This document shows positions 5,123 to 61,040 of a stretch of DNA of 64,000 nt, one piece after another (position 1 is the stretch's first letter; each line of letters begins with the position of its first letter). The DNA is from Impatiens glandulifera. Lineage: Eukaryota; Streptophyta; Magnoliopsida; Ericales; Balsaminaceae. The DNA lies in NCBI RefSeq assembly GCF_907164915.1, contig NC_061869.1, positions 1 to 64,000 on the forward strand, given 5' to 3'. The notes under the pieces were generated by a model. That model saw nothing but the letters and a program-made list of their open reading frames with translations. It was not told where the DNA came from and did not search any database. The translations under genes were made by a program, and so were the position numbers.

Positions 5123-5346
5123 CTCTCAGTTCTGTAGTTTAGTTCAGCTTACTTTTTTTTTTTTTAATGTAAGGCAAAGTTTGTTCCCACATCGTTACTT
5201 TACAAAAGAAATAGTATGTATATAAGTGATTAGAATTCTCTATATTATACTTATAATATGGGCCTGTGACCCATGTGGTGGTAATTATGCCCATTGGAAG
5301 TCAGTTCAAACGGGTCCTCACCAAAGGGTGGGCGGTAATTTGGGTT
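5123..5346 (+). repeat. Subtelomeric tail repeat, copy A
   Basis: This is the reference copy of a repeat seen 11 times in the window. In order it shows CTCTCAGTTCTGTAGTTTAG, a T12 run, AATGTAAGGCA, TTCCCACATCG (about 5190), a TATATAAGTGATTAGAATTC segment, GGGCCTGTGACCCATGTGG, CGGGTCCTCACCAAAGGG, and the terminus GGGTGGGCGGTAATTTGGG followed by TTTAGTGTTAGGTTTG, which looks like degraded telomere repeat. It follows the importin-5 fragment directly. No terminal inverted partner or target-site duplication is evident. I do not recognise a known transposon family. Confidence 0.8.
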
Positions 5347-6266
5347 TAGTGTTAGGTTTGTTTGTATGTAAAGAGTTATTCTTTCTCTAATTATAATACA
5401 CTTGTTATTTCTATTCAAATTGAAGTTTTGGCATTTTTTCGTTTTAGAATTTATTAAACCGTATATTATATTTATAGAATAGTAAATTAATTAAAAAACA
5501 CTAAATTATTATAAGTTTGGTTCATTAATTTAAACATATTTTAAGAGATGTATATAAACAATATTGAACCATTTTATTTATTATTTTTTTTGTATTTTAT
5601 GAATTGTGGCTTTAAAGTTTTAACAATAAAAATCATTCTCAATAATTATATATTTTTTTATCTCATTTTACTTAAATTTCATTCATGACCAAATTCTAAA
5701 GACAACCTTAGTAGACCAAATTTATTATTGTAGACCAAATTTATTATTGTCTTAGCTCTTTATAATGGATTGTCGTGGAAACTTTCACACAAAATATTTA
5801 AGTTCTTTTGGCCTATTATCAATATCAATCAATTTGGCCGTTAATTAGACATGAGAACTTGACTTGAAATTTTTACCATTTTATAAATTAAGTAACGTAA
5901 TTTTGAATAGTAAAATCAATTAAATTATAGTTTTAAAAAAGAAGACAACTTATAAATATAATTTTAAGAAATTAAACTTAAAATTAGATTAACAATTAAA
6001 TTAATATTAAATAAATAATCTTCATAGTTTTTTTCACCAATTAGTTTAGTCTAACATCATTTTTGAATAAAAAAGTAATTATTTTGAATTTATAAAATAT
6101 CATTTTGAATCTTGACTGCATATCATCAATGCATGTCATCATTTGAATTATTTTGGTATAATTTGTTTTTAAAAAAAATTGTTTGTGAAAAAAAGTAATT
6201 ATTATAACCCATTAATATTAAGTATTTACATTTTTATTAATAAAAATTTTATGTGATAAACAGTAG

Positions 6267-6341
<75 letters not shown>

Positions 6342-7620
6342 CTAATTTTATGAGTAATAATTTAAATCCAAACATTATTCTAAATATTATTAAAATAAGA
6401 CAATTTCAAACACCACACTTTTATAATTATGTATTTCAAATTCTACACTACTATCAATCATATTCAACTCTTTTTGTTTTAATTTTATTTTTTAAATATA
6501 GAACCATAACACCAATAAAATACTATTTCAATAAAAAAAAATTAAATCAGTACATATGCATTATGATATAAAGTAATTATATAGTAGATTCATAAAAATA
6601 AAAAATAAAAAATAAACTCCACCAAAATCGCATAAAATACTAGAATGGGAACATCAAATTTAGAATTCATAATATAACAAACTTATGAGAACAAGTTAAG
6701 AAACTAGTATCAAAATAAATTAAGGAATCATTCCATTCATCCTATTTAAAGCATTAAACTGTCATCACATTATTAATAATAATGACAAGTTTTAAGTTCT
6801 AACTTTTTCAAAAACTCACATTTGCCCTTTAAAATAACTAACCCCCAAATGTTCACTTGAAAATAAAATAAAATTAAATCAAATTATACAATATTATTAA
6901 TATTATAAAATAAATAAATAATCAACCTTCTCTATAAAGATTTAATATTTTCCTTCAACTTAGGAGATTCAAAAAACTGATTCCCACAATTTGATATATT
7001 CACCGTTTCTATCGGAAACTCCTGTTTACCGCCATACACATAAAGTATAATTTTCTATTACACCTATTTGAAAATATTCTTAATGTGTTAGTCAAAAAAT
7101 CGTGATTAAATTTTATTACAATTATATATTTTAAATATAAAAAAAAAATATGTAATAGAATTATACCTTTTGAAAATGAACAAGATTTGAGCTCTTAAGT
7201 ATGTTATATAATGTTCAGATCCTAAATTGAATTCATACCAACATTACCTTAAAAATAATAATGTTTCTTATTTTCATTTTAAAAATTGTATTCTAAATCT
7301 ACAATAAACACAAAAATAACTCATGTATAGATCAACCAAGTTAAACATGTCTTTCTCCTATCACATTTTTTATTAACCACAAGCACATAAAAAAAAGCCC
7401 AAATGACTAGAAATAATATATTTTAATTTCATATAATCTTGTCCACAAATATTCAAAACAGCATGTAGTACATGTATATGTAAATGTATGGATATATATA
7501 TAAGCATGTAGTACATATACATATAAATATTTGTATTATAGACTTTAATTATATAGTTTTAAAACAATTAAATAAAGTATTTTCTAAATGAGAGTAAAAT
7601 TTGAGTTTGGTTATTGTTAT
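5347..7620. other. AT-rich intergenic stretch, no gene seen
   Basis: About 2.3 kb of AT-rich DNA between tail copy A and the GIGANTEA fragment. It contains a long (TA)n microsatellite at about 6273-6339. ORFs here, such as 6350-6571, have low-complexity N/I/Y composition and match no protein I know. I see no similarity to the AT-rich module repeated at 12.7, 17.5, 36 and 59.6 kb. Confidence 0.7.
6273..6339. repeat. (TA)n microsatellite
   Basis: About 67 bp of uninterrupted TA dinucleotides inside AT-rich DNA. Confidence 0.95.
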
Positions 7621-7638
7621 TAAGTTTGAAGTTTAACT

Positions 7639-8112
7639 AAATCTATGGTTGCGGCTCATATCTCCGAACTCTTCAGCCAATCAAAAGCGTGCATGCGTGC
7701 TCTCTCTACCTTGATGCGGTGCAAGTGGAATAATGAAATCCGTGCAAGGGCTTCATCACTTTACAACCTCATTGATATACACAGTAAAACTGTAGCATCA
7801 ATTGCCAACAAAGTTGCGAGCCTTTTTGGAAGCAAACCTGATGCATGCACCAGTTTGAAAAGATCGTCGTGTTAATGGAAGAAAACCGAATATGTATGCA
7901 GGAGGTCTTGGAATTGACGTGTTAGAACAGAAACATGTCTATGAGGAGAAGTCTAGTAGGTCTTTCGATAATTTTAAAGGAACTTCAGTGGAACATTCCA
8001 CTGAAGGTGGCGTCTTGGGAAACAACAGCATGGGAAAAGGCATTGCAGGTTTCCTATTTGATGATGCCTCAGATTTGGATAGACATATTGGGTTAAATTG
8101 CAGTCCACCCAT
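7639..8112 (+). pseudogene. GI: GIGANTEA fragment 1 (middle region of the protein)
   Basis: GIGANTEA is a large plant-specific nuclear and cytosolic protein of the circadian and flowering pathway. The reading VAAHISELFSQSKACMRAL, then MRCKWNNEIRARASSLYN and LIDIHSKTVASIANK, matches its conserved middle region. A TAA stop at 7873 interrupts it. After a frame change, GKGIAGF, DASDL and DRHIGLNCS follow, and the segment normally lying between DASDL and MDRHIGFNCS is missing. No flanking exons are present. The fragment is followed within about 100 bp by the boundary of the inverted duplication at 8213. A different part of GI is found on the right arm at 52.5-53.0 kb. Confidence 0.85.
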
Positions 8113-8383
8113 TGATAGCTTATCTCCATTTTTTTCTACTCTAGAATTAAAATTCTATATATAAATGAGTCCTCATAAAACATGAGAGTTCTACTGTTTC
8201 TTCAAGTCATCCAGCCCACCTATATCATCATCATGACTCAAAACAAATACAAGAACTACACAACAATATTAGGCATTTTTATGTTTGTTTGTAATTTTGT
8301 GGGTAGGGGAAAAGCATGTATATCCAACAGGTTGTACTTGAGATGATAAAGAAGTGCCTTTTTTTGTTTATGGTTTGTTCTTA

Positions 8384-9638
8384 TCAGATCTTGTCATCAA
8401 GTTTTGAGGAATCCGAAAGTCCCTCGCGCTGCTTCTGTTGACTGACTGACATCTTGCTTTTCTTCCCACCTGGTTTAGAGGAAGCATTACCGTACCATAC
8501 CATCCCAATCACCGCTATTGTCATTCCTATAACCACTTGTAGATTTAGGCCCTCTTTCCCAAAGAACAAGAATCCTAGTATTAATACTAGGATTGTCTTC
8601 ATATGCCCAAAGACTTGAAATGATACGGCAGTGAATCTTTCTATGCATATGAACTGGCTAAGGTTAGTCCCTACTACAATCGTGCAAGAAAGGACGATAA
8701 ATACCTGAAACAACAAACAAAAAGATGAAATGAAAAGTGAAATCCTAAACTCTAAACTATTTTTTTTTCTATTTTTTTTACTTACAATAGATGATAGGCT
8801 GTACTCAAATGCATCAACTCTTTTGGTCGTGAGGCAATAATCAAGTAAGAGGGCAATAAGCAGCAAACTTGTAGCCTGAGATGGTGCGGTGTGCCCCAAC
8901 AAATTGAAAGAACTAAGAGAGTTTTTCCTCTGAAGGAAATGCACATAATATTGTTGCAGAGCAGTACTCAATACTACAATAAACGCAGCTATGAAACCTC
9001 TTCCATTTACACTAACATCAGTAACTGTGCAAACTCCTACCCCCTCAGAACAACTGCAATACTAAGTTTCGTGTTTCTTGAGTATCGAATCTTGTCAAAA
9101 ACCACTTCAAGTAAGCACGACACAGGTATCATGCTCAGCTTTGCAATCTGTGTATACGAAATTCAATATTTCATTCCAAAAAAAAAAAAAAAAACAACTA
9201 CAATCTGTCATGACCTGATAGAATCCTACAGAATTCCACATGAGACTAACATTCATACCAGCAATTGAGAAGTTAGCGACTATAACAAATTTCAGTAGGT
9301 CGGTGACTGGTAAATGTGAAGCTTGTATGTAACCCAACCACCTCAGAATAGCAGTCATCAATGTTGTCGTAGCAAAATGCAGTCGAGTCAATGTTGTAGC
9401 TGCATGCATTATCCATTGATTTGTCAAATAACAGAGTCGTCAAGGTTGTCCTAGTAAAATATATATATAAAATGATTTGATTATGAACAAAAATAAAGGA
9501 AATTGACCAAAAACTGAAACCATATGTAGCCATTAATGCTTTATTGACTAGAATGATTCCAACAGATGTGACGACATTTAACATCCATGCAGCTGCATCA
9601 ACTGCATCCTTCTTCTCAGCCTTGCAAGAAGGTGCCAT
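8384..9638 (-). pseudogene. UDP-xylose-transporter-like nucleotide-sugar transporter pseudogene, left copy
   Basis: A minus-strand gene of the drug/metabolite-transporter superfamily, most like plant UXT Golgi UDP-xylose transporters (multi-pass membrane antiporters, about 350 residues). The start reads [20 protein letters not shown] and [13 protein letters not shown]. Later exons read [82 protein letters not shown] and [15 protein letters not shown], ending at a stop at 8384. Exon order and splice sites are largely kept. One G is missing in the run encoding the stretch before [12 protein letters not shown] (about 9045), causing a frameshift shared with the right copy. A T16-17 run lies in the intron at about 9179-9195. 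It lies antisense to the tail repeats of this arm. Confidence 0.87.
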
Positions 9639-9908
9639 TTTCTATAACCACTTCCTTCCTTAAATTATTATATATCAATCAATTGCACCAAAATCTTCAC
9701 CATTCCTCCTCCTCCATAATAACTTGTCAATTTCAACACCTGCTGGTGGTTCAAGGTGTGTATGTGTGTGTGTGGAATCAACGACACTTCCACGGAAACC
9801 CTGAAAGAAGATATAATCAAGAACTAATATCATCATGAACATACTCAAACAAACTAGTCACAAAGCCATCATCACAGCACTAAAGGTTAATAATTTTCTT
9901 ACCATCCT

Positions 9909-10244
9909 ACTAATGGACTTGTTGGTCCATTGTCTGCAAACGCAGTTTCAGTTCCATATTTTCAGATGCCAGACCACTTGTATCTCTCTGTCAAAGTTAG
10001 AACAACACAAAATTGTCAAAATCATAAATATTAAATAGCCCCAACTTCTTGCCATGAAAACAGAAGATGGAAAAACAAAACACATTATGTTGTGCTAGAC
10101 CATCTACATACTTGCACCAGGGTTAGCTGAGTGGACAATGAAGTTGATTCTGTTTGCAGAGTTTGAACCTTCCGTTCAAGCTCATTAATATACCTCATCT
10201 TCCTTTCCTTAGACCTGGCAGCTGACTGTCGGTTTCCCCAGATC
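9909..10244 (-). pseudogene. bZIP transcription factor fragment (group I / RSG-VIP1 type), left copy
   Basis: Two minus-strand exons. Exon 10111-10244 reads [20 protein letters not shown] then [19 protein letters not shown], the basic region plus leucine zipper with the N-x7-R signature (NRQSAARSK). Exon 9909-9989 reads RDTSGLASENMELKLRLQTM DQQ, the distal zipper. This spelling is typical of plant group I bZIP proteins (bZIP29/bZIP18/VIP1 relatives). Activation-domain and C-terminal exons are not seen. The unit sits between the UXT-like pseudogene and unrecognised exons, and has a nearly identical inverted copy at 39347-39682. Confidence 0.85.
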
Positions 10245-10623
10245 CTATAATAAGTCAAGATGATTGATGTTACAAGTGTGAAGGCAAACATAAGTTAGCA
10301 TAAAATCATTGATGACTGATTATCTCTGTTGGATGTAGTAAGTACTTCCAGCAAGGGACTAGGGATAAAATATGCATTCAAGCAAATTATTGCTACATAC
10401 ACATTAACAGAGACAATATTCAAAACCCATAGGCTTTATATAACAAGATTTAACTACGCATTTAAAGGATAAATTGTCAGCACAAATAGATTATTATTAC
10501 TGTTTCATTGGTGCACCATAATATGTCACAGCACATAGGTCAATTTTTATATCAATCATACAAGCAAGTCCATCACTCTTTTTGCAAACAAGAAAACGAT
10601 TAGAGCCAGCATCCCATGATATC

Positions 10624-11515
10624 CTAGAGAGCAACCAGTATTTCAGTGACACAATTCCATGCAATGCAAATACATTGCATCCACATCAAACAGACAATAA
10701 CCAGGCTCCACTGCAAAAAAAAAATAGGAAAATAGATATAACTTGAGCTTAAATGTACATGGAAAAGAATAAAAAAATAACTATTGAGGAAGGTGAATAC
10801 TGCTAACAAATACTTAGGTTAAGTTGACTTGAATCAACACAGTAATCAATCCAAGTCCAAAGAAATGAGATACGCCTATAACTAAATAAGTCGAGGATGT
10901 CTCTTTCGCACAGAATGAAGCAAGACCAGTTGAGGATATTTCTGCATTATTCTTATTGCCAGCATCAACTTAAAATCTGTTCTTAGACTTGATCGGAACA
11001 TGAACTTTATTTCCAGAATTTGAGACTAATTCATCCATAACCTGTTCCTCAAATGAATTTTGCATAATATTTCCATTCTCAATAGCAGAATGTATTAATG
11101 TAGAATTTTTTTTCACCTGCAGCACCTCCATTAGAAATTAAATCAGTTGCATTTCCATTAGAATTTTCACCGTTTACAGCATTAACATTGTCTTTCCTTT
11201 TTATTTCTGAATTAAACCAGAAGCATACTCTAATCAAACAGCAGAAAAATCATCAGTCATATTAAAAGCATGGCCTTCAAACTCAATTCCTGCAATCTTC
11301 ATCAGGTTAGGCTGAACCACAGCAGTCTTAAAAACATTAACCTCAGTCTCTGTTTCAGATTCTTGATCCACATCAACATATCCCAAATCGTTAAGACTAG
11401 ACAGGTCCAGATTACTCAGAATTTGCTGTTCAACCTCAGTGTTAAAAATGGAGTCCTCATTCAGCCCAATAGCATCTGCAGAACCAGTATCACCAGCAGA
11501 ACTATTTTCCAGCAT
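10624..11515 (-). pseudogene. Unrecognised captured exons (minus strand)
   Basis: The reading 11234-11515 gives a 93-residue acidic stretch with LNEDSIFNTEVEQQILSNLD, DVDQESETETEVNV and GIEFEGHAFNMTDDFSAV before a stop. About 10.55-10.71 kb reads VSLKYWLLSRISWDAGSNRF and LACMIDIKIDLCAVTYYG. Both are conserved in the inverted right-arm copy (38310-38432 and 38881-39095). That reflects recent duplication, not selection. They look like coding exons of unknown genes between the bZIP fragment and tail copy H. I cannot name them. Confidence 0.45.
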
Positions 11516-12524: not shown

Positions 12525-12540
12525 AAAAGTACAGGAAAGA

Positions 12541-12692
12541 ATTCCCACATCGATATATTACAAAGTAAATTATATGAATATAATGGCTTAGAATTTAGTT
12601 AGTAATTGCTGGGCTGAATAATATGTGACTGTGACCGAACGGGGTAAAACTATGTTGCCAGATGATCTGGGTGGGTGGCAATTTGGTTTATT
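12541..12692 (+). repeat. Subtelomeric tail repeat, copy H (left)
   Basis: A degraded plus-strand tail: TTCCCACATCG, TTATATGAATATAATGG, GGGCTGAATAATATGTGACT, then TGGGTGGGTGGCAATTTGG ending in TTTA. It is the mirror copy of 38110-38290 inside the large inverted duplication. It is followed at once by the AT-rich module. Confidence 0.75.
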
Positions 12693-14884: not shown

Positions 14885-14899
<15 letters not shown>

Positions 14900-14904
14900 A
14901 TACC

Positions 14905-17244: not shown

Positions 17245-17515
17245 TAATGGAAACTATCCTCTAGCGGATCGGATCGTGACGGATTTTAAAGGGGTCAAGA
17301 GCTGTGGGAATTGTTTGAACTGAAATATTGTTTAGAACAAGAAAAAGAAAGAATTTCCACATTGCTAGTTTAATAGAAAAATTATATGAATATAATGGAC
17401 TATTATTCATTTCATGTTCGACGGGCCTGTAACTTTGGGCTTGGGCTGGCTTGTGTTTGTGGGGAGATTATATATGATGGATAATGGGTTAAACCCTAAA
17501 AGGGTGGGTTTTGTG
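17245..17515 (+). repeat. Subtelomeric tail repeat, copy I
   Basis: Plus-strand tail preceded by a 5' module (GGAAACTATCCTCTAGC, GGATCGTGACGG, GTCAAGAGCTGTGG) that is also found on the right arm at about 51560-51645. Then come TTTCCACATTGCTAG, TTATATGAATATAATGG, GGGCCTGTAACTTTGGGC and a terminus containing AAACCCTAAAAGGGTGGG. This terminus diverges from the other copies. Confidence 0.7.
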
Positions 17516-19674: not shown

Positions 19675-19719
<45 letters not shown>

Positions 19720-19735: not shown

Positions 19736-19739
19736 CCCT

Positions 19740-25579: not shown

Positions 25580-25700
25580 ATTTAATAGCATGGATGATGA
25601 TGATGCTTCTAGAATACAGATCTTAAAGAGTTGAAGAAACTATTCATATCTCCCATCAGAATGATATTGGACCGATACTTGTGGTGGAGAGCTGGCTGAG
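25580..25700. other. Unassigned piece between Ran 3' region and tail B
   Basis: Short, GATGATGATG-rich, possibly an acidic exon. Not recognised. Confidence 0.4.
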
Positions 25701-25918
25701 ATTGACTTAGTTTAGTTCCTCTTATTTTTTTTTATTTAAGGCAGAATTTATCCCACATTGCTTCTTTACAAATGTAAGCATCTGTTTATAACTGATTATA
25801 ACTCTTAGTACATTAAAAGGGCTTATTACATGGGCTGTGGCCCATGTGGGTAAAACTATATTCTTCAAAAGGCAGTCCAACCCGGTTCGCCCGAAGGGTG
25901 GGTGGGTGGTAATTCGGG
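25701..25918 (+). repeat. Subtelomeric tail repeat, copy B, fused to the telomere
   Basis: ATTGACTTAGTTTAGTTC, a T9 run, ATTTAAGGCAGAA, TATCCCACATTGC, a TTATAACTGATTATAACT segment, the hairpin-forming ATGGGCTGTGGCCCATGTGG, CCGGTTCGCCCGAAGGG and the terminus GGGTGGGTGGTAATTCGGG, which passes without a break into TTTCGGG repeats. Copy A (5123-5346) has the same order of segments. Confidence 0.85.
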
Positions 25919-26051
25919 TTTCGGGTTTCGGGTTTCGGGTTTCGGGTTTCGGGTTTCGGGTTTCGGGTTTCGGGTTTCGGGTTTCGGGTTTCGGGTTTCG
26001 GGTTTCGGGTTTCGGGTTTGGGGTTTAGGGTTTAGGGTTTAGGGTTTCGGG
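25915..26051 (+). repeat. Variant telomere repeats, proximal zone of the left telomere
   Basis: Fourteen TTTCGGG units after the tail's own TTCGGG, then one TTTGGGG, three TTTAGGG and one TTTCGGG before the canonical array. An ORF encoding VSGFGFR repeats here is an artefact of the 7-bp periodicity. Confidence 0.95.
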
Positions 26052-28550
26052 TTTAGGGTTTAGGGTTTAGGGTTTAGGGTTTAGGGTTTAGGGTTTAGGG
26101 TTTAGGGTTTAGGGTTTAGGGTTTAGGGTTTAGGGTTTAGGGTTTAGGGTTTAGGGTTTAGGGTTTAGGGTTTAGGGTTTAGGGTTTAGGGTTTAGGGTT
26201 TAGGGTTTAGGGTTTAGGGTTTAGGGTTTAGGGTTTAGGGTTTAGGGTTTAGGGTTTAGGGTTTAGGGTTTAGGGTTTAGGGTTTAGGGTTTAGGGTTTA
26301 GGGTTTAGGGTTTAGGGTTTAGGGTTTAGGGTTTAGGGTTTAGGGTTTAGGGTTTAGGGTTTAGGGTTTAGGGTTTAGGGTTTAGGGTTTAGGGTTTAGG
26401 GTTTAGGGTTTAGGGTTTAGGGTTTAGGGTTTAGGGTTTAGGGTTTAGGGTTTAGGGTTTAGGGTTTAGGGTTTAGGGTTTAGGGTTTAGGGTTTAGGGT
26501 TTAGGGTTTAGGGTTTAGGGTTTAGGGTTTAGGGTTTAGGGTTTAGGGTTTAGGGTTTAGGGTTTAGGGTTTAGGGTTTAGGGTTTAGGGTTTAGGGTTT
26601 AGGGTTTAGGGTTTAGGGTTTAGGGTTTAGGGTTTAGGGTTTAGGGTTTAGGGTTTAGGGTTTAGGGTTTAGGGTTTAGGGTTTAGGGTTTAGGGTTTAG
26701 GGTTTAGGGTTTAGGGTTTAGGGTTTAGGGTTTAGGGTTTAGGGTTTAGGGTTTAGGGTTTAGGGTTTAGGGTTTAGGGTTTAGGGTTTAGGGTTTAGGG
26801 TTTAGGGTTTAGGGTTTAGGGTTTAGGGTTTAGGGTTTAGGGTTTAGGGTTTAGGGTTTAGGGTTTAGGGTTTAGGGTTTAGGGTTTAGGGTTTAGGGTT
26901 TAGGGTTTAGGGTTTAGGGTTTAGGGTTTAGGGTTTAGGGTTTAGGGTTTAGGGTTTAGGGTTTAGGGTTTAGGGTTTAGGGTTTAGGGTTTAGGGTTTA
27001 GGGTTTAGGGTTTAGGGTTTAGGGTTTAGGGTTTAGGGTTTAGGGTTTAGGGTTTAGGGTTTAGGGTTTAGGGTTTAGGGTTTAGGGTTTAGGGTTTAGG
27101 GTTTAGGGTTTAGGGTTTAGGGTTTAGGGTTTAGGGTTTAGGGTTTAGGGTTTAGGGTTTAGGGTTTAGGGTTTAGGGTTTAGGGTTTAGGGTTTAGGGT
27201 TTAGGGTTTAGGGTTTAGGGTTTAGGGTTTAGGGTTTAGGGTTTAGGGTTTAGGGTTTAGGGTTTAGGGTTTAGGGTTTAGGGTTTAGGGTTTAGGGTTT
27301 AGGGTTTAGGGTTTAGGGTTTAGGGTTTAGGGTTTAGGGTTTAGGGTTTAGGGTTTAGGGTTTAGGGTTTAGGGTTTAGGGTTTAGGGTTTAGGGTTTAG
27401 GGTTTAGGGTTTAGGGTTTAGGGTTTAGGGTTTAGGGTTTAGGGTTTAGGGTTTAGGGTTTAGGGTTTAGGGTTTAGGGTTTAGGGTTTAGGGTTTAGGG
27501 TTTAGGGTTTAGGGTTTAGGGTTTAGGGTTTAGGGTTTAGGGTTTAGGGTTTAGGGTTTAGGGTTTAGGGTTTAGGGTTTAGGGTTTAGGGTTTAGGGTT
27601 TAGGGTTTAGGGTTTAGGGTTTAGGGTTTAGGGTTTAGGGTTTAGGGTTTAGGGTTTAGGGTTTAGGGTTTAGGGTTTAGGGTTTAGGGTTTAGGGTTTA
27701 GGGTTTAGGGTTTAGGGTTTAGGGTTTAGGGTTTAGGGTTTAGGGTTTAGGGTTTAGGGTTTAGGGTTTAGGGTTTAGGGTTTAGGGTTTAGGGTTTAGG
27801 GTTTAGGGTTTAGGGTTTAGGGTTTAGGGTTTAGGGTTTAGGGTTTAGGGTTTAGGGTTTAGGGTTTAGGGTTTAGGGTTTAGGGTTTAGGGTTTAGGGT
27901 TTAGGGTTTAGGGTTTAGGGTTTAGGGTTTAGGGTTTAGGGTTTAGGGTTTAGGGTTTAGGGTTTAGGGTTTAGGGTTTAGGGTTTAGGGTTTAGGGTTT
28001 AGGGTTTAGGGTTTAGGGTTTAGGGTTTAGGGTTTAGGGTTTAGGGTTTAGGGTTTAGGGTTTAGGGTTTAGGGTTTAGGGTTTAGGGTTTAGGGTTTAG
28101 GGTTTAGGGTTTAGGGTTTAGGGTTTAGGGTTTAGGGTTTAGGGTTTAGGGTTTAGGGTTTAGGGTTTAGGGTTTAGGGTTTAGGGTTTAGGGTTTAGGG
28201 TTTAGGGTTAGGGTTTAGGGTTTAGGGTTTAGGGTTTAGGGTTTAGGGTTTAGGGTTTAGGGTTTAGGGTTTAGGGTTTAGGGTTTAGGGTTTAGGGTTT
28301 AGGGTTTAGGGTTTAGGGTTTAGGGTTTAGGGTTTAGGGTTTAGGGTTTAGGGTTTAGGGTTTAGGGTTTAGGGTTTAGGGTTTAGGGTTTAGGGTTTAG
28401 GGTTTAGGGTTTAGGGTTTAGGGTTTAGGGTTTAGGGTTTAGGGTTTAGGGTTTAGGGTTTAGGGTTTAGGGTTTAGGGTTTAGGGTTTAGGGTTTAGGG
28501 TTTAGGGTTTAGGGTTTAGGGTTTAGGGTTTAGGGTTTAGGGTTTAGGGT
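26052..28550 (+). repeat. Left telomere array (TTTAGGG)n
   Basis: About 2.5 kb, roughly 357 units, almost perfect, with one 6-base TTAGGG unit near 28208. The G-rich strand is the plus strand and runs 5' to 3' into the gap, as expected for a chromosome end pointing right. Confidence 0.98.
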
Positions 28551-28650
28551 NNNNNNNNNNNNNNNNNNNNNNNNNNNNNNNNNNNNNNNNNNNNNNNNNN
28601 NNNNNNNNNNNNNNNNNNNNNNNNNNNNNNNNNNNNNNNNNNNNNNNNNN
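28551..28650. other. Assembly gap of exactly 100 N
   Basis: A round 100-base gap of unknown true size between two telomere arrays of opposite orientation, which points to a scaffolding join. Confidence 0.98.
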
Positions 28651-31169
28651 AACCCTAAACCCTAAACCCTAAACCCTAAACCCTAAACCCTAAACCCTAA
28701 ACCCTAAACCCTAAACCCTAAACCCTAAACCCTAAACCCTAAACCCTAAACCCTAAACCCTAAACCCTAAACCCTAAACCCTAAACCCTAAACCCTAAAC
28801 CCTAAACCCTAAACCCTAAACCCTAAACCCTAAACCCTAAACCCTAAACCCTAAACCCTAAACCCTAAACCCTAAACCCTAAACCCTAAACCCTAAACCC
28901 TAAACCCTAAACCCTAAACCCTAAACCCTAAACCCTAAACCCTAAACCCTAAACCCTAAACCCTAAACCCTAAACCCTAAACCCTAAACCCTAAACCCTA
29001 AACCCTAAACCCTAAACCCTAAACCCTAAACCCTAAACCCTAAACCCTAAACCCTAAACCCTAAACCCTAAACCCTAAACCCTAAACCCTAAACCCTAAA
29101 CCCTAAACCCTAAACCCTAAACCCTAAACCCTAAACCCTAAACCCTAAACCCTAAACCCTAAACCCTAAACCCTAAACCCTAACCCTAAACCCTAAACCC
29201 TAAACCCTAAACCCTAAACCCTAAACCCTAAACCCTAAACCCTAAACCCTAAACCCTAAACCCTAAACCCTAAACCCTAAACCCTAAACCCTAAACCCTA
29301 AACCCTAAACCCTAAACCCTAAACCCTAAACCCTAAACCCTAAACCCTAAACCCTAAACCCTAAACCCTAAACCCTAAACCCTAAACCCTAAACCCTAAA
29401 CCCTAAACCCTAAACCCTAAACCCTAAACCCTAAACCCTAAACCCTAAACCCTAAACCCTAAACCCTAAACCCTAAACCCTAAACCCTAAACCCTAAACC
29501 CTAAACCCTAAACCCTAAACCCTAAACCCTAAACCCTAAACCCTAAACCCTAAACCCTAAACCCTAAACCCTAAACCCTAAACCCTAAACCCTAAACCCT
29601 AAACCCTAAACCCTAAACCCTAAACCCTAAACCCTAAACCCTAAACCCTAAACCCTAAACCCTAAACCCTAAACCCTAAACCCTAAACCCTAAACCCTAA
29701 ACCCTAAACCCTAAACCCTAAACCCTAAACCCTAAACCCTAAACCCTAAACCCTAAACCCTAAACCCTAAACCCTAAACCCTAAACCCTAAACCCTAAAC
29801 CCTAAACCCTAAACCCTAAACCCTAAACCCTAAACCCTAAACCCTAAACCCTAAACCCTAAACCCTAAACCCTAAACCCTAAACCCTAAACCCTAAACCC
29901 TAAACCCTAAACCCTAAACCCTAAACCCTAAACCCTAAACCCTAAACCCTAAACCCTAAACCCTAAACCCTAAACCCTAAACCCTAAACCCTAAACCCTA
30001 AACCCTAAACCCTAAACCCTAAACCCTAAACCCTAAACCCTAAACCCTAAACCCTAAACCCTAAACCCTAAACCCTAAACCCTAAACCCTAAACCCTAAA
30101 CCCTAAACCCTAAACCCTAAACCCTAAACCCTAAACCCTAAACCCTAAACCCTAAACCCTAAACCCTAAACCCTAAACCCTAAACCCTAAACCCTAAACC
30201 CTAAACCCTAAACCCTAAACCCTAAACCCTAAACCCTAAACCCTAAACCCTAAACCCTAAACCCTAAACCCTAAACCCTAAACCCTAAACCCTAAACCCT
30301 AAACCCTAAACCCTAAACCCTAAACCCTAAACCCTAAACCCTAAACCCTAAACCCTAAACCCTAAACCCTAAACCCTAAACCCTAAACCCTAAACCCTAA
30401 ACCCTAAACCCTAAACCCTAAACCCTAAACCCTAAACCCTAAACCCTAAACCCTAAACCCTAAACCCTAAACCCTAAACCCTAAACCCTAAACCCTAAAC
30501 CCTAAACCCTAAACCCTAAACCCTAAACCCTAAACCCTAAACCCTAACCCCAAACCCTAAACCCTAAACCCTAAACCCTAAACCCCTAAACCCTAAACCC
30601 TAAACCCTAAACCCTAAACCCTAAACCCTAAACCCTAAACCCTAAACCCTAAACCCTAAACCCTAAACCCTAAACCCTAAACCCTAAACCCTAAACCCTA
30701 AACCCTAAACCCTAAACCCTAAACCCTAAACCCTAAACCCTAAACCCTAAACCCTAAACCCTAAACCCTAAACCCTAACCCTAAACCCTAAACCCTAAAC
30801 CCTAAACCCTAAACCCTAAACCCTAAACCCTAAACCCTAAACCCTAAACCCTAAACCCTAAACCCTAAACCCTAAACCCTAAACCCTAAACCCTAAACCC
30901 TAAACCCTAAACCCTAAACCCTAAACCCTAAACCCTAAACCCTAAACCCTAAACCCTAAACCCTAAACCCTAAACCCTAAACCCTAAACCCTAAACCCTA
31001 AACCCTAAACCCTAAACCCTAAACCCTAAACCCTAAACCCTAAACCCTAAACCCTAAACCCTAAACCCTAACCCTAAACCCTAAACCCTAAACCCTAAAC
31101 CCTAAACCCTAAACCCTAAACCCTAAACCCTAAACCCTAAACCCTAAACCCTAAACCCTAAACCCTAAA
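28651..31169 (-). repeat. Right telomere array (CCCTAAA)n
   Basis: About 2.5 kb with the G-rich strand on the minus strand, so the chromosome end points left into the gap. It has a few off-length or variant units (near 29181, 30545, 30583, 30777 and 31070), more than the left array. Confidence 0.98.
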
Positions 31170-31225
31170 CCCCAAACCCCAAACCCCAAACCCCAAACCC
31201 CAAACCCCAAACCCGAAACCCGAAA
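31170..31225 (-). repeat. Variant telomere repeats, proximal zone of the right telomere
   Basis: Six CCCCAAA units (31170-31211) and two CCCGAAA units (31212-31225) next to the tail terminus. The order and type differ from the left arm, where TTTCGGG dominates. Confidence 0.95.
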
Positions 31226-31445
31226 TACCACCCGCCCACCCTTTTAGGTGGATTCCGTTAATCCCAAACTTTAAAACCCACCCAATAAACACATGCAAAT
31301 CACAAGCCCATGATACAGGCCCATGCTATATGCTTAATTATAATATATTATATACATATCATTTCTTTTCTTCTCTAGCAATGTGGGAAAAAACTCATTA
31401 CATAAAAAAAAAAATAGGCTGAATACAGCAAAGGGTTTATGATTA
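31226..31445 (-). repeat. Subtelomeric tail repeat, copy C, fused to the telomere
   Basis: Read on the minus strand: CTGTATTCAGCC, a T11 run, ATGTAATGAG, TTCCCACATTGCTAGAGAAG, TAATTAAGCATATAGCATGG, GGGCCTGTATCATGGGC, and the terminus AAGGGTGGGCGGGTGGTATT followed by TCGGG repeats. Its closest relative is copy G at 60865-61040, which shares the GCTAGAGAAGAA and AATTAAGCATATA segments. Confidence 0.85.
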
Positions 31446-31882
31446 TGCTGTATACATATCAGGAGGTGATCCATAGTCTTCCATGAATGCAGAATCACCC
31501 ATTCTTCACCTTCACCTGCAACATCAGACGATCCTATACACAACAATCAAGTAATTCAATCAAAACTCAACATTCAAATTCATTTCCTATACAAAATGTG
31601 ACGGTCCAAGGAAGAATGGGATAAGACAAGGTTTGGTTAGCGGAATAGGTTTTGGGCTATCTTTTACCTTGCTGTTTTGTGTCTACGCATTAAGCTTCTC
31701 TGTTGTACAAGGGTCCATGCACTTGATGATGTAGTATAAGCTGCAGAAGAGAAGCAAACGCAAAATTAGTCATATTTTTAAGAAGACATTTGCTGCAGAC
31801 TGAAGTCATCTTTACTTCAGAGATAAACTAACTCTAGCAAGTGCAGCCTTGAGATCAACCCAGGGATGAGAACTTGACTCAT
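31446..31882 (-). pseudogene. Unrecognised captured exons
   Basis: Minus-strand exon-like readings: VVPPTQQQGHIDDDESSSHP then WVDLKAALAR (about 31835-31925), [20 protein letters not shown] (about 31670-31742), and MGDSAFMEDYGSPPDMYTA (about 31452-31512). They are joined by intron-like sequence with plausible AG/GT borders, suggesting one gene of unknown family downstream of the Ran 3' region. I cannot identify it. Confidence 0.4.
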
Positions 31883-33902: not shown

Positions 33903-34195
33903 AACCCTTTCGGGCGAACCTGTATGGAACAGTTTCCCAAATTCCATTATCTCCCCCATTTGGGTCACAGGCCCAGATTACCTAACCCATCAAATATAGG
34001 TAGATAATTAATGATATATATACATAACAAAATCTTCATAACTTGGCGAGGTGGGAAAAACATAGTTTTACAATAAAAAAAAATATAAGGCTGAACAAAA
34101 CTAAGTGAAAGTTCAGGCAGAACTGAAAGAAATCCGTTGGGCAGTTGCTTTTGATTCTGATGCTTCAATGGTTGCTTTTGATTCTGTGTCAATTT
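33903..34195 (-). repeat. Subtelomeric tail repeat, copy D, with terminal-exon-like module
   Basis: On the minus strand, an exon-like module (about 34195-34110; reading ESKATIEASESKATAQRISF SSA and a stop) runs into TTTCAGTTCTGCC, TTTGTTCAGCC, a T9 run, TTCCCACCTCGCC, TATGTATATATATCATTAAT, GGGCCTGTGACCCAAATGG, and CAGGTTCGCCCGAAAGGG at 33903. The same module precedes copy F at 52.4 kb. The G-rich terminus is lost at the junction with the Ran promoter-side sequence. Confidence 0.75.
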
Positions 34196-38109: not shown

Positions 38110-38300
38110 CCACAAAATTAAACCCAAATTACCACCCACCGGGTAAACCCGATCATCTGGCAACAAAGCTTTACCCCGTTGGGTCACAGTCACATATTAT
38201 TCAGCCCAGCAATTATTAACTAAATTCTAACCCATTATATTCATATAATTTACTTTGTAATATATCGATGTGGGAATTCTTTCCTGTACTTTGTAACCCG
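38110..38300 (-). repeat. Subtelomeric tail repeat, copy H' (right)
   Basis: Minus strand: TTCCCACATCGATATATTAC, TTATATGAATATAATGGG, TGTGACTGTGACCCAACGGG, ATGATCGGGTTTACCCGG and TGGGTGGTAATTTGGGTTTA, so it keeps a better terminus than its left mirror copy. The GGGTTTA end equals one telomere repeat. Confidence 0.8.
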
Positions 38301-38309
38301 ATCAAGAAT

Positions 38310-45898: not shown

Positions 45899-45924
45899 TA
45901 AATTTAGACTGACTTATGTTGAGC

Positions 45925-46105
45925 ATAATTACCCCCACATGGGTCACAGGCACATGTTTTAAGCCTTTACATGATAAGAAGAATTCTAATCAGTTATATA
46001 CATTCTATTTCTTTTGGAATATGGCGATGTGGGAACTAATTTTTCCTTACATAAAAAAAAAGTAAGCTGAACTAAACTACAGAACTGAGAGAGAGATATT
46101 TTCTT
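45925..46105 (-). repeat. Subtelomeric tail repeat, copy E
   Basis: Minus strand: CTCTCAGTTCTGTAGTTTAG then TTCAGCTTAC, T9, ATGTAAGG, TTCCCACATCGCC, AACTGATTAGAATTC, TGTGCCTGTGACCCATGTGG and GGGTAATTATGC. It is closest to copy A on the left arm and shares the same 5' boundary. It lacks the distal part after GTAATTATGC. Confidence 0.82.
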
Positions 46106-49920: not shown

Positions 49921-51425
49921 AAGATGATGAAACCCTAGAGCTTAGGGAAACATCGTGTGCTCGGTGTTTTAGTTTGTCCTCGACAAGTTATGCCTCAGGA
50001 ATAAAGTTCCCTCTTGCCCTCAACTTATTATCACTTGAGCGTTTTTACCCTTAACTTTTCTTCCATTTTGTCTATATGATTTCTTATGCTTTATTTTCTT
50101 TTCTTGCAAAGCTTACTATGCAACTTGATCATGCATTTTAATCGAAATTATGGGCTTAATTCCAATTTTATTAGGTTTTAGTAAACAAAAAATAACATTA
50201 AAATTGAAATTCCAACAAACACAATGTAATTTTACCATTCTTAATTTTATTTTTATTTTTTAAATAATTTTGATTTCTCGAAGAGTGCTTTATTTTTATA
50301 TATAATTTGTTAATTTAATAAGTTAACTCAAATATGTAACCATTAAAAATCAATTAAAAATTTTACCATCAACTGAAATTTTAAATTTATTGAAAAATTT
50401 ATGTCAAATATTTAAATTGTTTTTTCTTAAAAAAATAGATTTTAGTTTATAACCTCAAAGAACACTTTATTAATTTCTTTCTTCTTTTTACTATTCATAA
50501 CTTTCCGTTTAACAAAATCAAACACTTAAAAATAAAAATTAAATTAGAGAATTGGCAACATACTTTTAATTAAAGTTACAAATCTTTGTAGAGTTATTCT
50601 TTAATTTTTATCACTATTTTATAATCTTTAAAGTTTTCTTTTTATTATTATTATTTTGAATAATAATTAAGTTAGTATTAAAGTGTAAATCGAATTAGTT
50701 CGGTTATTTGAATAAAATATATATATCCGATCACAATTAATCAAAACATTATATAGCTCTATATTCGATCGATAGAACGTTATTCGGCTCGGTAAGTATA
50801 ATGATTTGACGGTTGAGATCGGTTAAATTGTGGAACTTAATTGACAAGATGATTTGAGACTTGACAATGTTAATGTTACGATATTTTTAGAGTTTTTTTT
50901 TTTTTGTAAGATTGAATTGTAATTATATCTTCTATAAGTTAGTAAAAAATGGTTATTTATATAAATTTGTATAATTAATAAAATGTTAAGATCATGGAAC
51001 ATAGTTGTATAATTCATTGTCAAACTTTGATATAAGATCATTTGATTGTTTAATGTATATGGTTTACGTTGTTTCATATATATATATATATATGATTTCA
51101 TCAAATCATTTAGTTGTCTAATATATATATGCATGAAAGATTTGTTCAAACTCAAGTTCTCACTTGGCCTTGAACCTACCACGGTCCACTATTCGGATTC
51201 ATTTATTCTTCTTGAAGATGCAGTTGTTCCAAAACCAATTTTGCCCCTTCCACAAACCATCTAGTTCCAGCATAAAAAAATAATATTAGTTCATAATACT
51301 AGAATCTGAAACAATATAGCCACACCATTGCATATCCCCATCTACAAATGTAACATTCTTTCTTTCATCATGACCAATTATACATCATCTAACAATATAA
51401 TAAAGAAATATCCGAACCCATTAAC
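49921..51425. other. AT-rich stretch, no gene seen
   Basis: Mostly AT-rich with short TATATA tracts. The overlapping ORFs at 50823-51264 do not match a known family; a short piece at about 51140-51262 (GLEPTTVHYSDSFILLED) could be exonic. Confidence 0.6.
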
Positions 51426-51429
51426 CAAC

Positions 51430-51650
51430 CATATTATTTCCCCACTTGGGGGTAAAAACCTATATTACTAAGCCAAACAATTATATGTTCAATAATAATC
51501 AATTATATACATAACATTTTCTTCCTAGTCTAGTAATATATCCTTATCCCCTTGTTATAAGTAATATTACAGAACAATTTCCACAACTCTTGACGGCTCT
51601 TTTAAAACCGTCACGATCCTGCTAGACGATAGTTTCCTTGTCGTTGATTT
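51430..51650 (-). repeat. Subtelomeric tail repeat, copy F2 (degraded)
   Basis: On the minus strand it shares the 5' module of copy I (GGAAACTATCGTCTAGC, GGATCGTGACGG, GTCAAGAGTTGTGG), followed by TATGTATATAATTGATTATT, AAGTGGGGAAATAATATGG. The TCCCACATCG core is eroded. Orientation agrees with the other right-arm tails. Confidence 0.6.
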
Positions 51651-52012: not shown

Positions 52013-52194
52013 AATGATAATTATTTGTTATGCTTTAATTTGGTAAATATTATTGTACAATAAATTTATTTATATTTTTAAGATGAGAGTTAAAATAAAA
52101 ACAAAAACCCTTTTATTTATATTTTAAAGATGACAGTTAAAATAAAAACAAAAACCCTTTTATTTATATTGCGAACATATTTAAACCAATTTTT

Positions 52195-52445
52195 CAAATT
52201 TCATTATTTCCCACTTAACCTAAAGGCCTAGGCTACTTAGCCCATCTAATATAAACATATAACTAATCACATATATACAGAACAATATCATCCTAACATA
52301 TCCTAACATATCGATGTGGGATAAAACTCAGTATTACATAAAAAAAAGGAGCCTGAACTAAACTAAGTCAAAATTAAGGCAGAACTGAAAGAAATCCGTT
52401 GGGCAGTTGCTTTTGATTCTGGTGCTTCTATCTGTGTCAATTTTG
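52195..52445 (-). repeat. Subtelomeric tail repeat, copy F
   Basis: Minus strand: terminal-exon-like module shared with copy D (GAATCAAAAGCAACTGCCCA, CGGATTTCTTTCAGTTCTGC), GACTTAGTTTAGTTCAGG, T8, ATGTAATACTGAG, TATCCCACATCGATATG, TATATGTGATTAGTTATATG and AAGTGGGAAATAATG. The G-rich terminus is missing. Confidence 0.78.
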
Positions 52446-57560: not shown

Positions 57561-57939
57561 TGCCAATTCTTCTTCAACAGTGAAACGAGAAAGTTAGTTC
57601 ATTTGCACATTTTGGAACAACTGCTTCTCTTCCATGCTTAGGTTCCCAACAGCAACACCCATGCACAGAACCTTTTTCAATTGGAACTTAACTGTTGCCT
57701 TGATCTCGTTCACTTTCTCTTCAAATCATGCCCAATCCTCTTACATACACTACAAGAATGCTTTAATTTTTCTAACTGCAAAAACATGTAAGTAAAACGA
57801 TTAGAGAATGAACAATAGAAATGACGATCAATGAAATAGCAAATACATACAACATAGAAAGAATCCTAGTACAACCTAAGAGATTATAGATGAAATCACA
57901 AAACATGGTCAACAAAGAATAGGAGCCCATGTCTAACAT

Positions 57940-59600
57940 AGAAAGTTAGCATACCTGTTCCTGTTTCTCCTGAACTTCCTCTATAAATGTTCGCCTCTTC
58001 AAAGCGAAATGTAAATAAAACACTTGTGCAGCTTTCTTATGCAACTATTAAAATAGAAAGAAAAAAGGTATTATTCATATGTACCATTTAGTTGGTCCAA
58101 TATACGTTCATTCTCACAGTGAAACTATATTGAGTTCAACTTTATGAAAAGGAAGGATTACAAATGATCCTCTAGCAACCACTCTCATTTTCCACAATAA
58201 GAATACTATCATTTTCCACAATCAGAAATCAATGTGCTGAAAAAATGACTAATAAACTCGCCTAGAAGACTAACAGCAACTGAAACTACTGAAATTAGAC
58301 AACAGTATATAAATAATCTGAAATCTAAGTACTTCTTGATATGTGAAATGAAACAATACCAAACAAAAGGTGCATGGTAAGATTAGCCACACAAACTAAT
58401 CCAATTTTTCATCCCATCAATGAGAAAAATGCAAATCCTTCATTTGATTATATATGTAACTCTAGGTGTAACTCTAGGCTTTCAGTTACAGGAATCAATC
58501 AATATGAATAATCAAATCAAAGCAGCTTGGAAAAGACTTTAGTAACCATAGTAATTTTCCTAAGCTGATAATATAATAAAATAATACCATTCATGACTAG
58601 TATGGAAGTGAGTGAATTATGCCAGGAGTCTGAAATTCAAGTGGCTAACTCATCATTGAGTAGAACTCAGTGCCATTAATGAAAGCTTGATCCAATGTTT
58701 TGTTTGTGAAACCGTTTCAATAAGGTTCTAATGTCAGTTTCCACTTATATATTACAGTAGTATGTTGAGCCTATTTCTATTAATCAAAGTCGTATGCAAA
58801 GTTGAAACCAAACAGCTTAGCAGTTAGCTCCACATATTTCTAGTAAGATTAAAAAACATATTATACTTTCAAACCCCCACAAGCAGTAGAAACTTAGCTC
58901 AAACACTTGTCTATTTATCACCTCAATATTCAGAATCGCAATTCACATATTCACTCGCAATAAACAAGAGCAAGAGCAAAAACAAACAAGCTATGATCAG
59001 TTAAAAGAGATCATACCTATTTGTATTGGAACTCGATGGTGTAAGAAAGGAGTGCTGGACTAATATCGGTAGCGTCAGGCCGAGAAACGGACACGATTTT
59101 GGCCGTGGGCAACTCATCGAAAATTGGAGTCGACTCCAGGTCATCAACGTGTTGGAGAAGAAAGGTGGCTCCGTCTGCATTTCCCTACTCCCTTCTCTCT
59201 CATACGATTTCTCACGTTTATCCCGATCTGACTTATTATCTTTATCGTAAGACTTCTCACACTTTCCTCGATCGTTCTTAGGTTCATGAGATCTCTTGCG
59301 CTTATCGCGACGATCGGATTGCATCTCCCTGTTATCTTCCATATCCATCTTCCCTTCACGAAATCTCTCACGCTCCGAAGAATGCTCTCGGGTCCTTCGG
59401 CGGTCACCGCCGCCATCGTCGTCCCCCGGTCCTTGTCGTACTTTGAGCGATGCCTTTAGTACTTTGAGCGATGCCTTTATTTATCATCGCGGTCATCTTT
59501 GAATGATTTGTGCCTACTGGACCGGTGCTTATGACCTCGATCGCGATCTTCAGAGAAATCTTTCTCTCTATCTTCACGATCGACCTCTAGATTTAGGGTT
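57940..59600 (-). pseudogene. PLD-zeta exons 1-2 with RD-rich fragment, right copy 2
   Basis: Direct repeat of 34340-35965. Exon 2 at about 57951-58040 again encodes HKKAAQVFYLHFALKRRTFI EEVQEKQEQ; exon 1 ends at about 59013 with FQYK followed by TAG; RD-rich reading follows to about 59416. Near 59440-59480 a 21-bp segment (GTACTTTGAGCGATGCC) is tandemly duplicated, absent from the other copies. Confidence 0.82.
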
Positions 59601-59619
59601 TAGTCAATTTGGTATATTA

Positions 59620-59623
59620 TTAT

Positions 59624-59667
<44 letters not shown>

Positions 59668-60862
59668 AGTGTAAAATAGTAACAAATTCAAATATTAAAA
59701 GGGAATACAAATATAGTAAAAAAATGTTAAGTCATTAAAATAATTGCTTGAGTTATTTATTTTGACAAATTTTCAGCATAAATAATATCAAAATAACAAT
59801 TTCCAAATAGGTTTACATTTACTTATGATATCAATATGTAATTATTCAATTAAAATAGACTTAAAAGTGCATTGTCATAGACCAGATTAAAACTTTTTGT
59901 CCAATTTTATTACAATCTAACACTATTTTATACATATAATATGAAAAGAAAAGAAATATGTCACATTTAAATAGATGATGTAATCCTCTATTAATTAACA
60001 CTGACAAGAAATTTGACTTATTTATGCTAGGTATGAGAATATAAACAAGAGGAATTAGTAATGGTGAGGTTAGGCTCATCTGCTAAATTATGTTTCCTTT
60101 CGTTATAAAAATAAAATAAAAAGCATGCACCAATTAGTATGGTTTCGTCTATACAATTTAATATTCTTAGTGAGATAATTAATTTTTTCATGCCTCAAGA
60201 TTTCCCATATATCTTCATTTGTCCCGTCTCACTAGACATAGTGTCTCACTAAACATAGTTAATTTATTTTTTTATTTTTTTATTTTATCATTTTCACCTA
60301 ATTAATTAGGTTTTGATACCTGGATTGAATATTTTTATGAGTCAAATGAGGTTGAGCTATCCAAAATTTTAGTTATTAGAAACCTTTTTCAAATAAACAA
60401 AATGTCCATATCACTTTCGATATTTCGTAATATTTCGTTTTTCTAATTAATTTATCACTTTTTAAAATTAAATGATATTTAGAAACGTTTTGAACATATC
60501 TTTTTTAAATTGAGTATTATTTTCGATATTTACGCATTTTAATTTGTCGAATTTGATTTAAGTAACTAAAAAAATTGTAATTTGAAAAAATATTTAAGAA
60601 AATTTAAATAGAGAAATATTTTGTATTTATTTTTAAAAAATATTCATAAAGACACAACTTTGTGTTTTGTTTATCAATTTAGACGTATTTATGTTTTAAA
60701 TTGAGTATTTTTCAAAATATATGTGTTCAAAACTGTCTAATATTGTTATAATACCTTAAAAATATATATAATAAGTGAGAATAATTGGAAAAATCAAAAA
60801 AAAAATTTATAATTTATCTTTACAAATGTGAAAAAAAAAATTAATGACAAATTTTTTAATAA
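59620..60862 (-). repeat. AT-rich subtelomeric module, right copy 2 (truncated)
   Basis: Matches 36000-37135, with a (TA)n tract at 59629-59664. On its tail-proximal side it ends at 60862, much earlier than copy 1 (38105), directly against tail G. Confidence 0.83.
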
Positions 60863-60864
60863 TT

Positions 60865-61040
60865 GAAGTATCCATTAAACTGACCCAATATACCAACAAT
60901 TCATAAGCCCAAGATACGGGCCCATGTTATATGCTTAATTATAATCCATTATATAAATAACATTTTCCTTCTTCTCTAGCAATGTGGGAATATACTTATC
61001 ACATAAAAAAAAATTAGCTGAATACAGAGCAAAGTGTTTA
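60865..61040 (-). repeat. Subtelomeric tail repeat, copy G
   Basis: Minus strand: CTGTATTCAGC, T9, ATGTGATAAG, TTCCCACATTGCTAGAGAAG, TAATTAAGCATATAACATGG, GGGCCCGTATCTTGGGC and ATTGGGTCAGTTTAATGG. Closest to telomere-capped copy C. The G-rich terminus is absent. Confidence 0.8.

What the first reader, a model, noticed from the sequence alone, without database searches (positions are those of the whole stretch)
5123..61040. A tail repeat present 11 times always points to its own telomere
Seen directly: tails A, H, I and B on the left arm (about 5.1, 12.5, 17.2 and 25.7 kb) are all on the plus strand. Tails C, D, H', E, F2, F and G on the right arm (about 31.2, 33.9, 38.1, 45.9, 51.4, 52.2 and 60.9 kb) are all on the minus strand. 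The order of segments is T-run, TCCCACATCG, GGGCCTGTGACCCATG and, in better-kept copies, GGGTGGGTGGTAATT. Ordinary transposition should give mixed orientations. Inference: each internal tail is a fossil chromosome terminus buried by later addition of terminal DNA, or the tail is the distal end of an element that is added only at chromosome ends. I do not recognise a described family.
Basis: partly seen in the sequence, partly recalled or inferred. Interest (0 to 1): 0.92.

Follow-up and report, generated by a model that had tools for sequence, protein, structure and literature searches.

The report
Telomere-facing promoter repeat at plant chromosome ends
A short repeat next to two plant telomeres, with nine more copies further inside, all facing their telomere, looks like a small-RNA-type promoter aimed into the telomere, so it is a candidate start point for plant telomere RNA.

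Summary
A profile finds 11 copies in the window (4 plus, 7 minus), each facing its own telomere; leave-one-out models recover the 10 anchored copies. Polarity alone is not special: all 34 duplicated alignments scored share it, as terminal exchange predicts. B and C abut the two telomeres present. By eye, buried copies stop at, or within about 45 bp of, that junction, so 'fossil chromosome end' is well supported. Spacing is 24 bp in 10 of 11 copies and 34 bp in one through a 10-bp duplication; neighbouring spacings vary more. It points outward along the G-strand. Copy B has no TTTT terminator before the gap; copy C has one, at about +47. Best reading: a telomere-junction element carrying a candidate TERRA promoter, in role like human TAR1. 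No transcription data were available, and the genome-wide scan did not complete. The plant is Impatiens-like.

The parts
5120..5342 (+). Tail A (buried). USE 5185-5194, TATA 5219-5225; ends GGTAATTTGGGTTTAGTGTTAGGTTTG, read by eye as a degenerate telomere stub
12526..12690 (+). Tail H (buried). USE 12543-12552, AATATAA 24 bp on; ends GGCAATTTGGTTTA
17335..17490 (+). Tail I (buried). USE variant TTCCACATTG at 17355, AATATAA 24 bp on
25690..25914 (+). Tail B (present end, left arm). USE 25751-25760, TTTATAA 25785-25791; runs straight into GGGTTTC/GGGTTTA
25915..28550 (+). Telomere array of the left arm, TTTAGGG with proximal TTTCGGG variants, no TTTT
28551..28650 (.). 100 N scaffold gap between two chromosome ends
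28651..31225 (-). Telomere array of the right arm, proximal TTTGGGG variants, no TTTT
31223..31452 (-). Tail C (present end, right arm). USE 31379-31388, TATA 24 bp on; one TTTT about 47 nt after the estimated start
33915..34169 (-). Tail D (buried). USE variant TCCCACCTCG at 34047-34056
38125..38292 (-). Tail H' (buried), 96% identical to H; ends GGTAATTTGGGTTTA
45908..46094 (-). Tail E (buried), 84% identical to A; by eye joined to what reads as a WD40-like coding piece on its proximal side (no search run)
51414..51560 (-). Tail F2 (buried). USE decayed, TATA kept
52184..52385 (-). Tail F (buried). 10-bp tandem duplication makes USE-TATA spacing 34 bp
60865..61053 (-). Tail G (buried), 81% identical to C

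Best explanation
The tail is an element of about 225 bp that sits at the subtelomere-telomere junction of both chromosome ends seen here. SHOWN BY SEQUENCE: it carries the elements of a plant snRNA-type (type-3) promoter, USE TCCCACAT(C/T)G then 24 bp then a TATA box, directed into the telomere. INFERRED: SNAPc and TBP recruit a polymerase, Pol III judging by the spacing, and transcription starts about 25 bp after the TATA box. It runs out through the element and, at present ends, into (TTTAGGG)n, which has no T4 stop, making UUUAGGG (TERRA) RNA. SUPPORTED BY ANATOMY: the nine internal copies are former termini. A telomere was lost or eroded, and a terminal piece of another chromosome end (gene segment, tail, telomere) was joined or copied on. 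Such terminal exchange keeps polarity, so all copies face their own telomere. Buried copies meet TTTT soon beyond the tail and could give only short RNAs.
For: 11 copies, one polarity. Exact USE only in tails (8 of 8). USE-TATA spacing 24 bp in 10 of 11 copies and 34 bp in F (F2's by alignment, its USE being decayed), against four lengths for TATA to GGGC (11 copies) and four for T-run to USE (the 7 copies with a T-run). Centre to centre that is about 32.5 and 42.5 bp, three and four helical turns (my arithmetic). Column identity in 9 copies: USE 93%, TATA 88%, spacer 68%, upstream 55%, downstream 72%; 2 of 71 circular shifts reach the USE+TATA mean. Published USE is RTCCCACATCG, in soybean RTCCCACA(T/C)(T/C)G with TATA-like GTTTATA; B has GTTTATA. 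In plants Pol III genes have USE one helical turn closer to TATA than Pol II genes at four turns, and the distance decides the polymerase. B and C abut telomeres. No TTTT in B from the estimated start to the gap (2,735 nt), none in either array. All 34 duplicated alignments share polarity.
Against: No RNA, chromatin or binding data. Only two present ends are in the window; the genome search did not complete, so copies elsewhere could not be scored. C has a TTTT about 47 nt after the estimated start, which should stop much Pol III there. The first USE base is T, not R, in 8 of 10 USE-bearing copies. A strict TWTATAW scan meets the 24-bp site in only 6 tails; H, H' and I have AATATAA. The conservation contrast is modest and the copies are related. 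The 24-bp figure was compared with published descriptions, not with this plant's own U6 genes; base counts for known U6 genes are recalled only, and the review puts USE at -70, a few bases further than here. [quoted passage not shown] The transcribed part shows no shared fold (4 pairs, -0.02 kcal/mol, 9 copies; single folds z -1.1, +0.65, -2.6 for B, A, C).
Confidence: 0.45

Rival explanations
1. Passenger: one chromosome end once carried a USE-type small-RNA gene promoter, and ordinary subtelomeric exchange spread it. It is now an inert telomere-associated sequence with no role in telomere RNA.
For: All 34 duplicated alignments scored, not only tails, have one polarity. Subtelomeric spread needs no function. 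Some copies are decayed (F2 lost USE, F changed spacing), and C has an early TTTT.
Against: USE, TATA and the 24-bp spacing are better kept than the sequence around them although copies are only 50-71% alike outside the close pairs, and both present ends keep them intact.
Confidence: 0.33
2. A short RNA gene or SINE-like unit: USE/TATA makes a small noncoding RNA that ends before the telomere, and the telomere contact is incidental.
For: Type-3 promoters normally drive short RNAs; USE is reported in U-RNA, MRP, SRP, telomerase RNA and SINE genes. C and the eight anchored buried copies have TTTT 47-176 nt after the estimated start (F2 not tested).
Against: Rfam: no match in the window at gathering; tail A at permissive E-value gives none and tail B one hit far below its cut-off (14.5 against 50 bits). 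No shared fold. B has no terminator at all.
Confidence: 0.12
3. The tail is one terminus of a DNA transposon (Helitron, MULE or similar) that carries gene pieces.
For: A/E and C/G share the tail but not the proximal flank, with edges at nearly the same place (-65/-60 and -64/-64 from USE). One proximal segment encodes a transposase-associated domain (PF13963).
Against: No opposite-facing copy in the window and no inverted GGGTGGGTGGTAATT. At B and C the far end runs into telomere repeats. D/F and I/F2 break elsewhere (-113, -106).
Confidence: 0.05
4. TGGGCY plus telomeric (telo-box) repeats act as a Pol II promoter firing inward, making C-rich ARRET RNA.
For: TGGGCY lies within 100 bp downstream of TATA in 9 of 11 tails, 13 sites in 1,100 bp, against 14 in 56,545 bp outside tails and arrays; copies are related. 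ARRET is known in plants.
Against: USE and TATA are well conserved and face outward; pairing of TGGGCY with telo-boxes in promoters is recalled, not tested.
Confidence: 0.05

Closest known systems
Human TAR1 element (TERRA promoter next to most telomeres)
   Same: Next to telomere repeats; in human it encodes the TERRA promoter and most ends are directly adjacent to one (passages of preprint PMC13174434). Telomere arrays here also show proximal variant repeats.
   Different: TAR1 carries CTCF sites and is in print as a TERRA promoter; here the promoter is USE plus TATA with Pol III-like spacing and its function is untested. Sequences were not compared.
Plant type-3 snRNA promoters (U6, U3, SRP, MRP, telomerase RNA)
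   Same: USE consensus and TATA box in the same order, with one short fixed spacing (passages).
   Different: No recognised small-RNA gene follows; what follows at present ends is telomere.
Arabidopsis telomere transcripts TERRA and ARRET
   Same: Telomere-directed transcription in a plant; the 2R gene-promoter region can fire weakly into the telomere (passages of PMC2883606).
   Different: No repeated dedicated promoter was described in the passages seen; for tobacco the authors assume start sites of unknown sequence within the telomere (passages of PMC4219495).
Yeast X and Y' subtelomeric elements (recalled)
   Same: Repeated terminal elements with one polarity, spread by terminal exchange, with copies left inside.
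   Different: Recalled; not compared here.

Membership tests
Plant type-3 (USE plus TATA) promoter | USE, RTCCCACATCG or soybean RTCCCACA(T/C)(T/C)G | tested here: met
   Exact TCCCACAT(C/T)G in 8 of 11 copies, one mismatch in I and D, lost in F2. The first base is R in only 2 of 10 (B, F).
Plant type-3 (USE plus TATA) promoter | TATA box at a fixed short spacing | tested here: met
   24 bp in 10 of 11 by alignment, 34 bp in F; box is TATATAA, TTTATAA, TATATAT or AATATAA.
Plant type-3 (USE plus TATA) promoter | Spacing of the Pol III class, one turn shorter than the Pol II class | tested here: inconclusive
   24 bp fits three helical turns against four, but this plant's U6 and U2 genes were not available; a U6 control pattern found nothing in genome contigs.
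Plant type-3 (USE plus TATA) promoter | Transcription by Pol III from the predicted start | not testable with these tools
   No RNA data held.
TERRA promoter (TAR1-like role) | Lies at the telomere boundary facing the telomere | tested here: met
   2 of 2 ends in the window, B and C.
TERRA promoter (TAR1-like role) | Present at many chromosome ends | not tested
   The genome search gave no answer in 12 requests; n is 2 ends.
TERRA promoter (TAR1-like role) | Drives G-rich telomere RNA | not testable with these tools
   No RNA data; only absence of TTTT was checked, met in B and not in C.
Telomerase RNA or other known small-RNA gene | Match to a known RNA family | tested here: not met
   0 gathering matches in the window; nothing near a cut-off for tails A and B, the two tried at permissive E-value.
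DNA transposon | Inverted terminus | tested here: not met
   No opposite-strand copy of core or end motif in the window.
DNA transposon | Target-site duplication | not tested
   No empty site was available for comparison.

The most novel reading that the evidence does not exclude
This plant has a dedicated, snRNA-type (SNAPc/Pol III) TERRA promoter built into a conserved cap at each chromosome end. Broken ends are healed by gaining this short cap, perhaps copied from its own telomere transcript: in four pairs (A/E, C/G, D/F, I/F2) the sequence shared upstream of the USE is at most 113 bp, as if only a short terminal piece is transferred. The fifth pair, H/H', shares more upstream sequence beyond an indel of about 1.16 kb and so reads as an ordinary larger duplication.
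Probability: 0.1. Interest if true: 0.9.

Novelty: new variant of a known kind. Interest (0 to 1): 0.62.

Why it matters
Plant telomere RNA is known, but in the passages seen its start sites are assumed to be of unknown sequence (tobacco) or are a weak side product of one gene promoter (Arabidopsis). A repeated, recognisable promoter at the telomere junction would make TERRA start sites and polymerase directly testable in a plant. A Pol III-type promoter would be unlike the Pol II account given for yeasts, vertebrates and plants. Buried copies would also give a countable record of past chromosome ends.

Tried and rejected
Polarity as evidence of a special mechanism: rejected, since all 34 duplicated alignments share it. 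The 10-mer alone: not above chance at 2 mismatches. T-run as the poly-A end of a retroelement: rejected, since sequence upstream of the T-run is shared across A, B, C, D, E, F, G (19 of 55 pairs above z 4.5 in -75..-2, against 3 of 55 in -260..-70; the T-run itself adds to those z values, but TTAGTTCAGC next to it is found within 3 mismatches in 6 tails and nowhere else). A shared RNA fold in the transcribed part: not found (9 of 11 copies aligned, F2 and G left out). Known RNA family: none. Telomerase RNA relation: the CCCTAAA-like piece in tail I is not shared in that form by the other copies (by eye). A uniform proximal edge: A/E and C/G agree, D/F and I/F2 do not, and H/H' is interrupted by an indel. 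The USE-like site at 32787 with 24-bp spacing has two mismatches and reads by eye as part of a Ran-like coding stretch; taken as chance. Interstitial telomere pieces: weak 12-13 of 14 matches occur in both orientations, and only A's (5339) follows a tail directly, so they do not by themselves prove fossil telomeres. Searches outside: 0 matches in viral contigs; 0 for a plant U6 control pattern in genome contigs, so the spacing rule could not be checked on real U6 genes. Waibel and Filipowicz 1990 is not held.
Full report
What the window is. Bases 25915-28550 are a TTTAGGG array and 28651-31225 its reverse complement, with 100 N between: two plant chromosome ends placed head to head in a scaffold. 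The best hit of each of two protein searches is named Impatiens glandulifera: a UDP-rhamnose/galactose transporter copy (177 identities of 192 ungapped positions, the gap read as an unspliced intron) and a sphingosine-1-phosphate lyase exon (97% over 55% of the query). The plant is thus Impatiens-like; the species was not fixed.

The repeat is real. A profile of 10 copies finds 11 places, 4 on plus left of the gap and 7 on minus right of it, none reversed, E 2.7e-13 or better. Leave-one-out models find each of the 10 anchored copies at 7.3e-15 or better. Exact TCCCACAT(C/T)G occurs 8 times, all in tails, against a mean of 0.05 and a largest of 2 in 60 Markov simulations.

Polarity is shared by all duplications scored. 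I compared the window with itself, arrays masked. All 34 alignments of 60 bp or more at E 1e-5 (23 segments, 11 tails) keep the same direction relative to the telomere. Terminal exchange between chromosome ends, by recombination, break-induced copying or end joining, gives this (established knowledge). Independence is also less than 11: A/E, C/G, D/F and H/H' are pairs, and I and F2 share their upstream flank.

Former ends. B and C run straight into telomere repeats. By eye, buried copies end at or close to the same point: A and H/H' keep GG(T/C)AATT followed by about one TTTGG(G)TTTA unit or a little more; I, D and F stop within about 20 bp; F2, E and G within about 25-45 bp. The profile needs the core, so copies cut back further would not be counted. 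Then comes unrelated, mostly AT-rich DNA (GC 0.18-0.23 in several 1-kb bins distal to tails). H/H', I and G are followed by the same segment of about 3 kb, meeting the tail at different internal positions, which suggests separate joints or later deletions at the joint. Proximal flanks mostly differ: of 55 pairs, D/F and two weaker ones, A/I and I/B, share something in -260..-70. H/H' is different: both copies share upstream sequence too, but H has about 1.16 kb more between it and the tail. All this fits serial loss of a telomere and gain of a new terminal piece. It does not show which repair pathway did it.

What the tail contains. Reading toward the telomere: a shared stretch and T-run (7 copies), then TCCCACAT(C/T)G, 24 bp, TATATAA or a close variant, a variable AT-rich piece, TGGGCY motifs (9 copies), in the fuller copies a G-rich end like GGGTGGGTGGTAATT, then, at B and C, telomere. 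USE RTCCCACATCG plus TATA is the core of plant snRNA-type promoters; Pol III genes have the two one helical turn closer than Pol II genes, which have four turns (passages of PMC9845283). The distance decides the polymerase in land plants (passages of PMC9841428). Soybean U6 genes show RTCCCACA(T/C)(T/C)G and GTTTATA (passages of PMC4448504). Telomerase RNA genes have USE, TATA and terminator (passages of PMC6765143), and U-RNA, MRP, SRP and SINE genes also carry USE (passages of PMC12133305).

Is the promoter constrained? Spacing is 24 bp in 10 of 11 copies; the exception, F, has exactly 10 bp more through a tandem duplication, one helical turn. Centre to centre this is about 32.5 and 42.5 bp, three and four turns (my arithmetic). 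TATA to GGGC has four lengths among 11 copies and T-run to USE has four among the 7 with a T-run. Column identity, for 9 copies with H' dropped as near-identical, F2 left out and F's duplication removed, is 93% in USE and 88% in TATA, against 68% in the spacer, 55% upstream and 72% downstream; 2 of 71 circular shifts do as well. This is suggestive, not decisive, because the copies share ancestry. Against it: the first USE base is T, not R, in 8 of 10 copies. The stretch downstream has no shared fold.

Where it points. Transcription would run outward and give the G-strand sequence, UUUAGGG RNA, at present ends. Pol III stops at T runs. From the estimated start (65 nt after the USE start) to the gap, B has no TTTT in 2,735 nt; C has one at about +47 and no other; the eight anchored buried copies first meet one at 83-176 nt (F2 not tested). 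C is evidence against efficient Pol III read-through at that end.

Comparison. The closest role is that of human TAR1, which lies next to most telomeres and encodes the TERRA promoter (passages of preprint PMC13174434). Plant TERRA exists (passages of PMC4219495 and PMC2883606): for tobacco the authors assume start sites of unknown sequence, and in Arabidopsis one gene promoter fires weakly into the telomere. [quoted passage not shown] My searches for USE or TERRA promoters with telomeres, subtelomeres or Pol III listed 20 of 188, 1 of 1, 15 of 19, 15 of 39 and 12 of 267 papers; none of those listed describes such an element in its title or the start of its abstract. I did not read most of them, and the library lacks most subscription journals.

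Limits. The claim 'at each chromosome end' rests on two ends. No expression data were available. I put the composite reading at 0.45 and the passenger reading at 0.33.

Noticed in passing
28551-28650: Two telomeres meet head to head across 100 N, which looks like a scaffold join of two separate chromosome ends.
   Followed up: partly
52184-52385 (-): Tail F has an exact 10-bp tandem duplication between USE and TATA, which would move it from Pol III-like to Pol II-like spacing.
   Followed up: yes
12700-15228, 17537-20653, 34201-37464, 57802-60835: An AT-rich segment of up to about 3 kb follows tails H, I, H' and G, meeting the tail at different internal points; AT-rich blocks also follow other buried tails.
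   Followed up: partly
25915-26060 and 31160-31225: The innermost telomere repeats are variants: mostly TTTCGGG on the left end, mostly TTTGGGG on the right.
   Followed up: no
16453-17232: ORF with a transposase-associated domain (PF13963) just proximal to tail I, ending in an acidic repeat.
   Followed up: no
8212-11368 and 38300-41325: A stretch with a UDP-sugar transporter gene copy is shared by both ends at about 99% identity, a recent exchange between these two subtelomeres or their relatives.
   Followed up: partly
11369-12525: About 1.16 kb next to tail H is missing beside its near-identical partner H', with the edge 17 bp before the USE.
   Followed up: no
tails, about 24-47 nt after TATA: TGGGCY motifs in 9 of 11 tails: 13 in 1,100 bp, against 14 in 56,545 bp outside tails and arrays.
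   Followed up: partly
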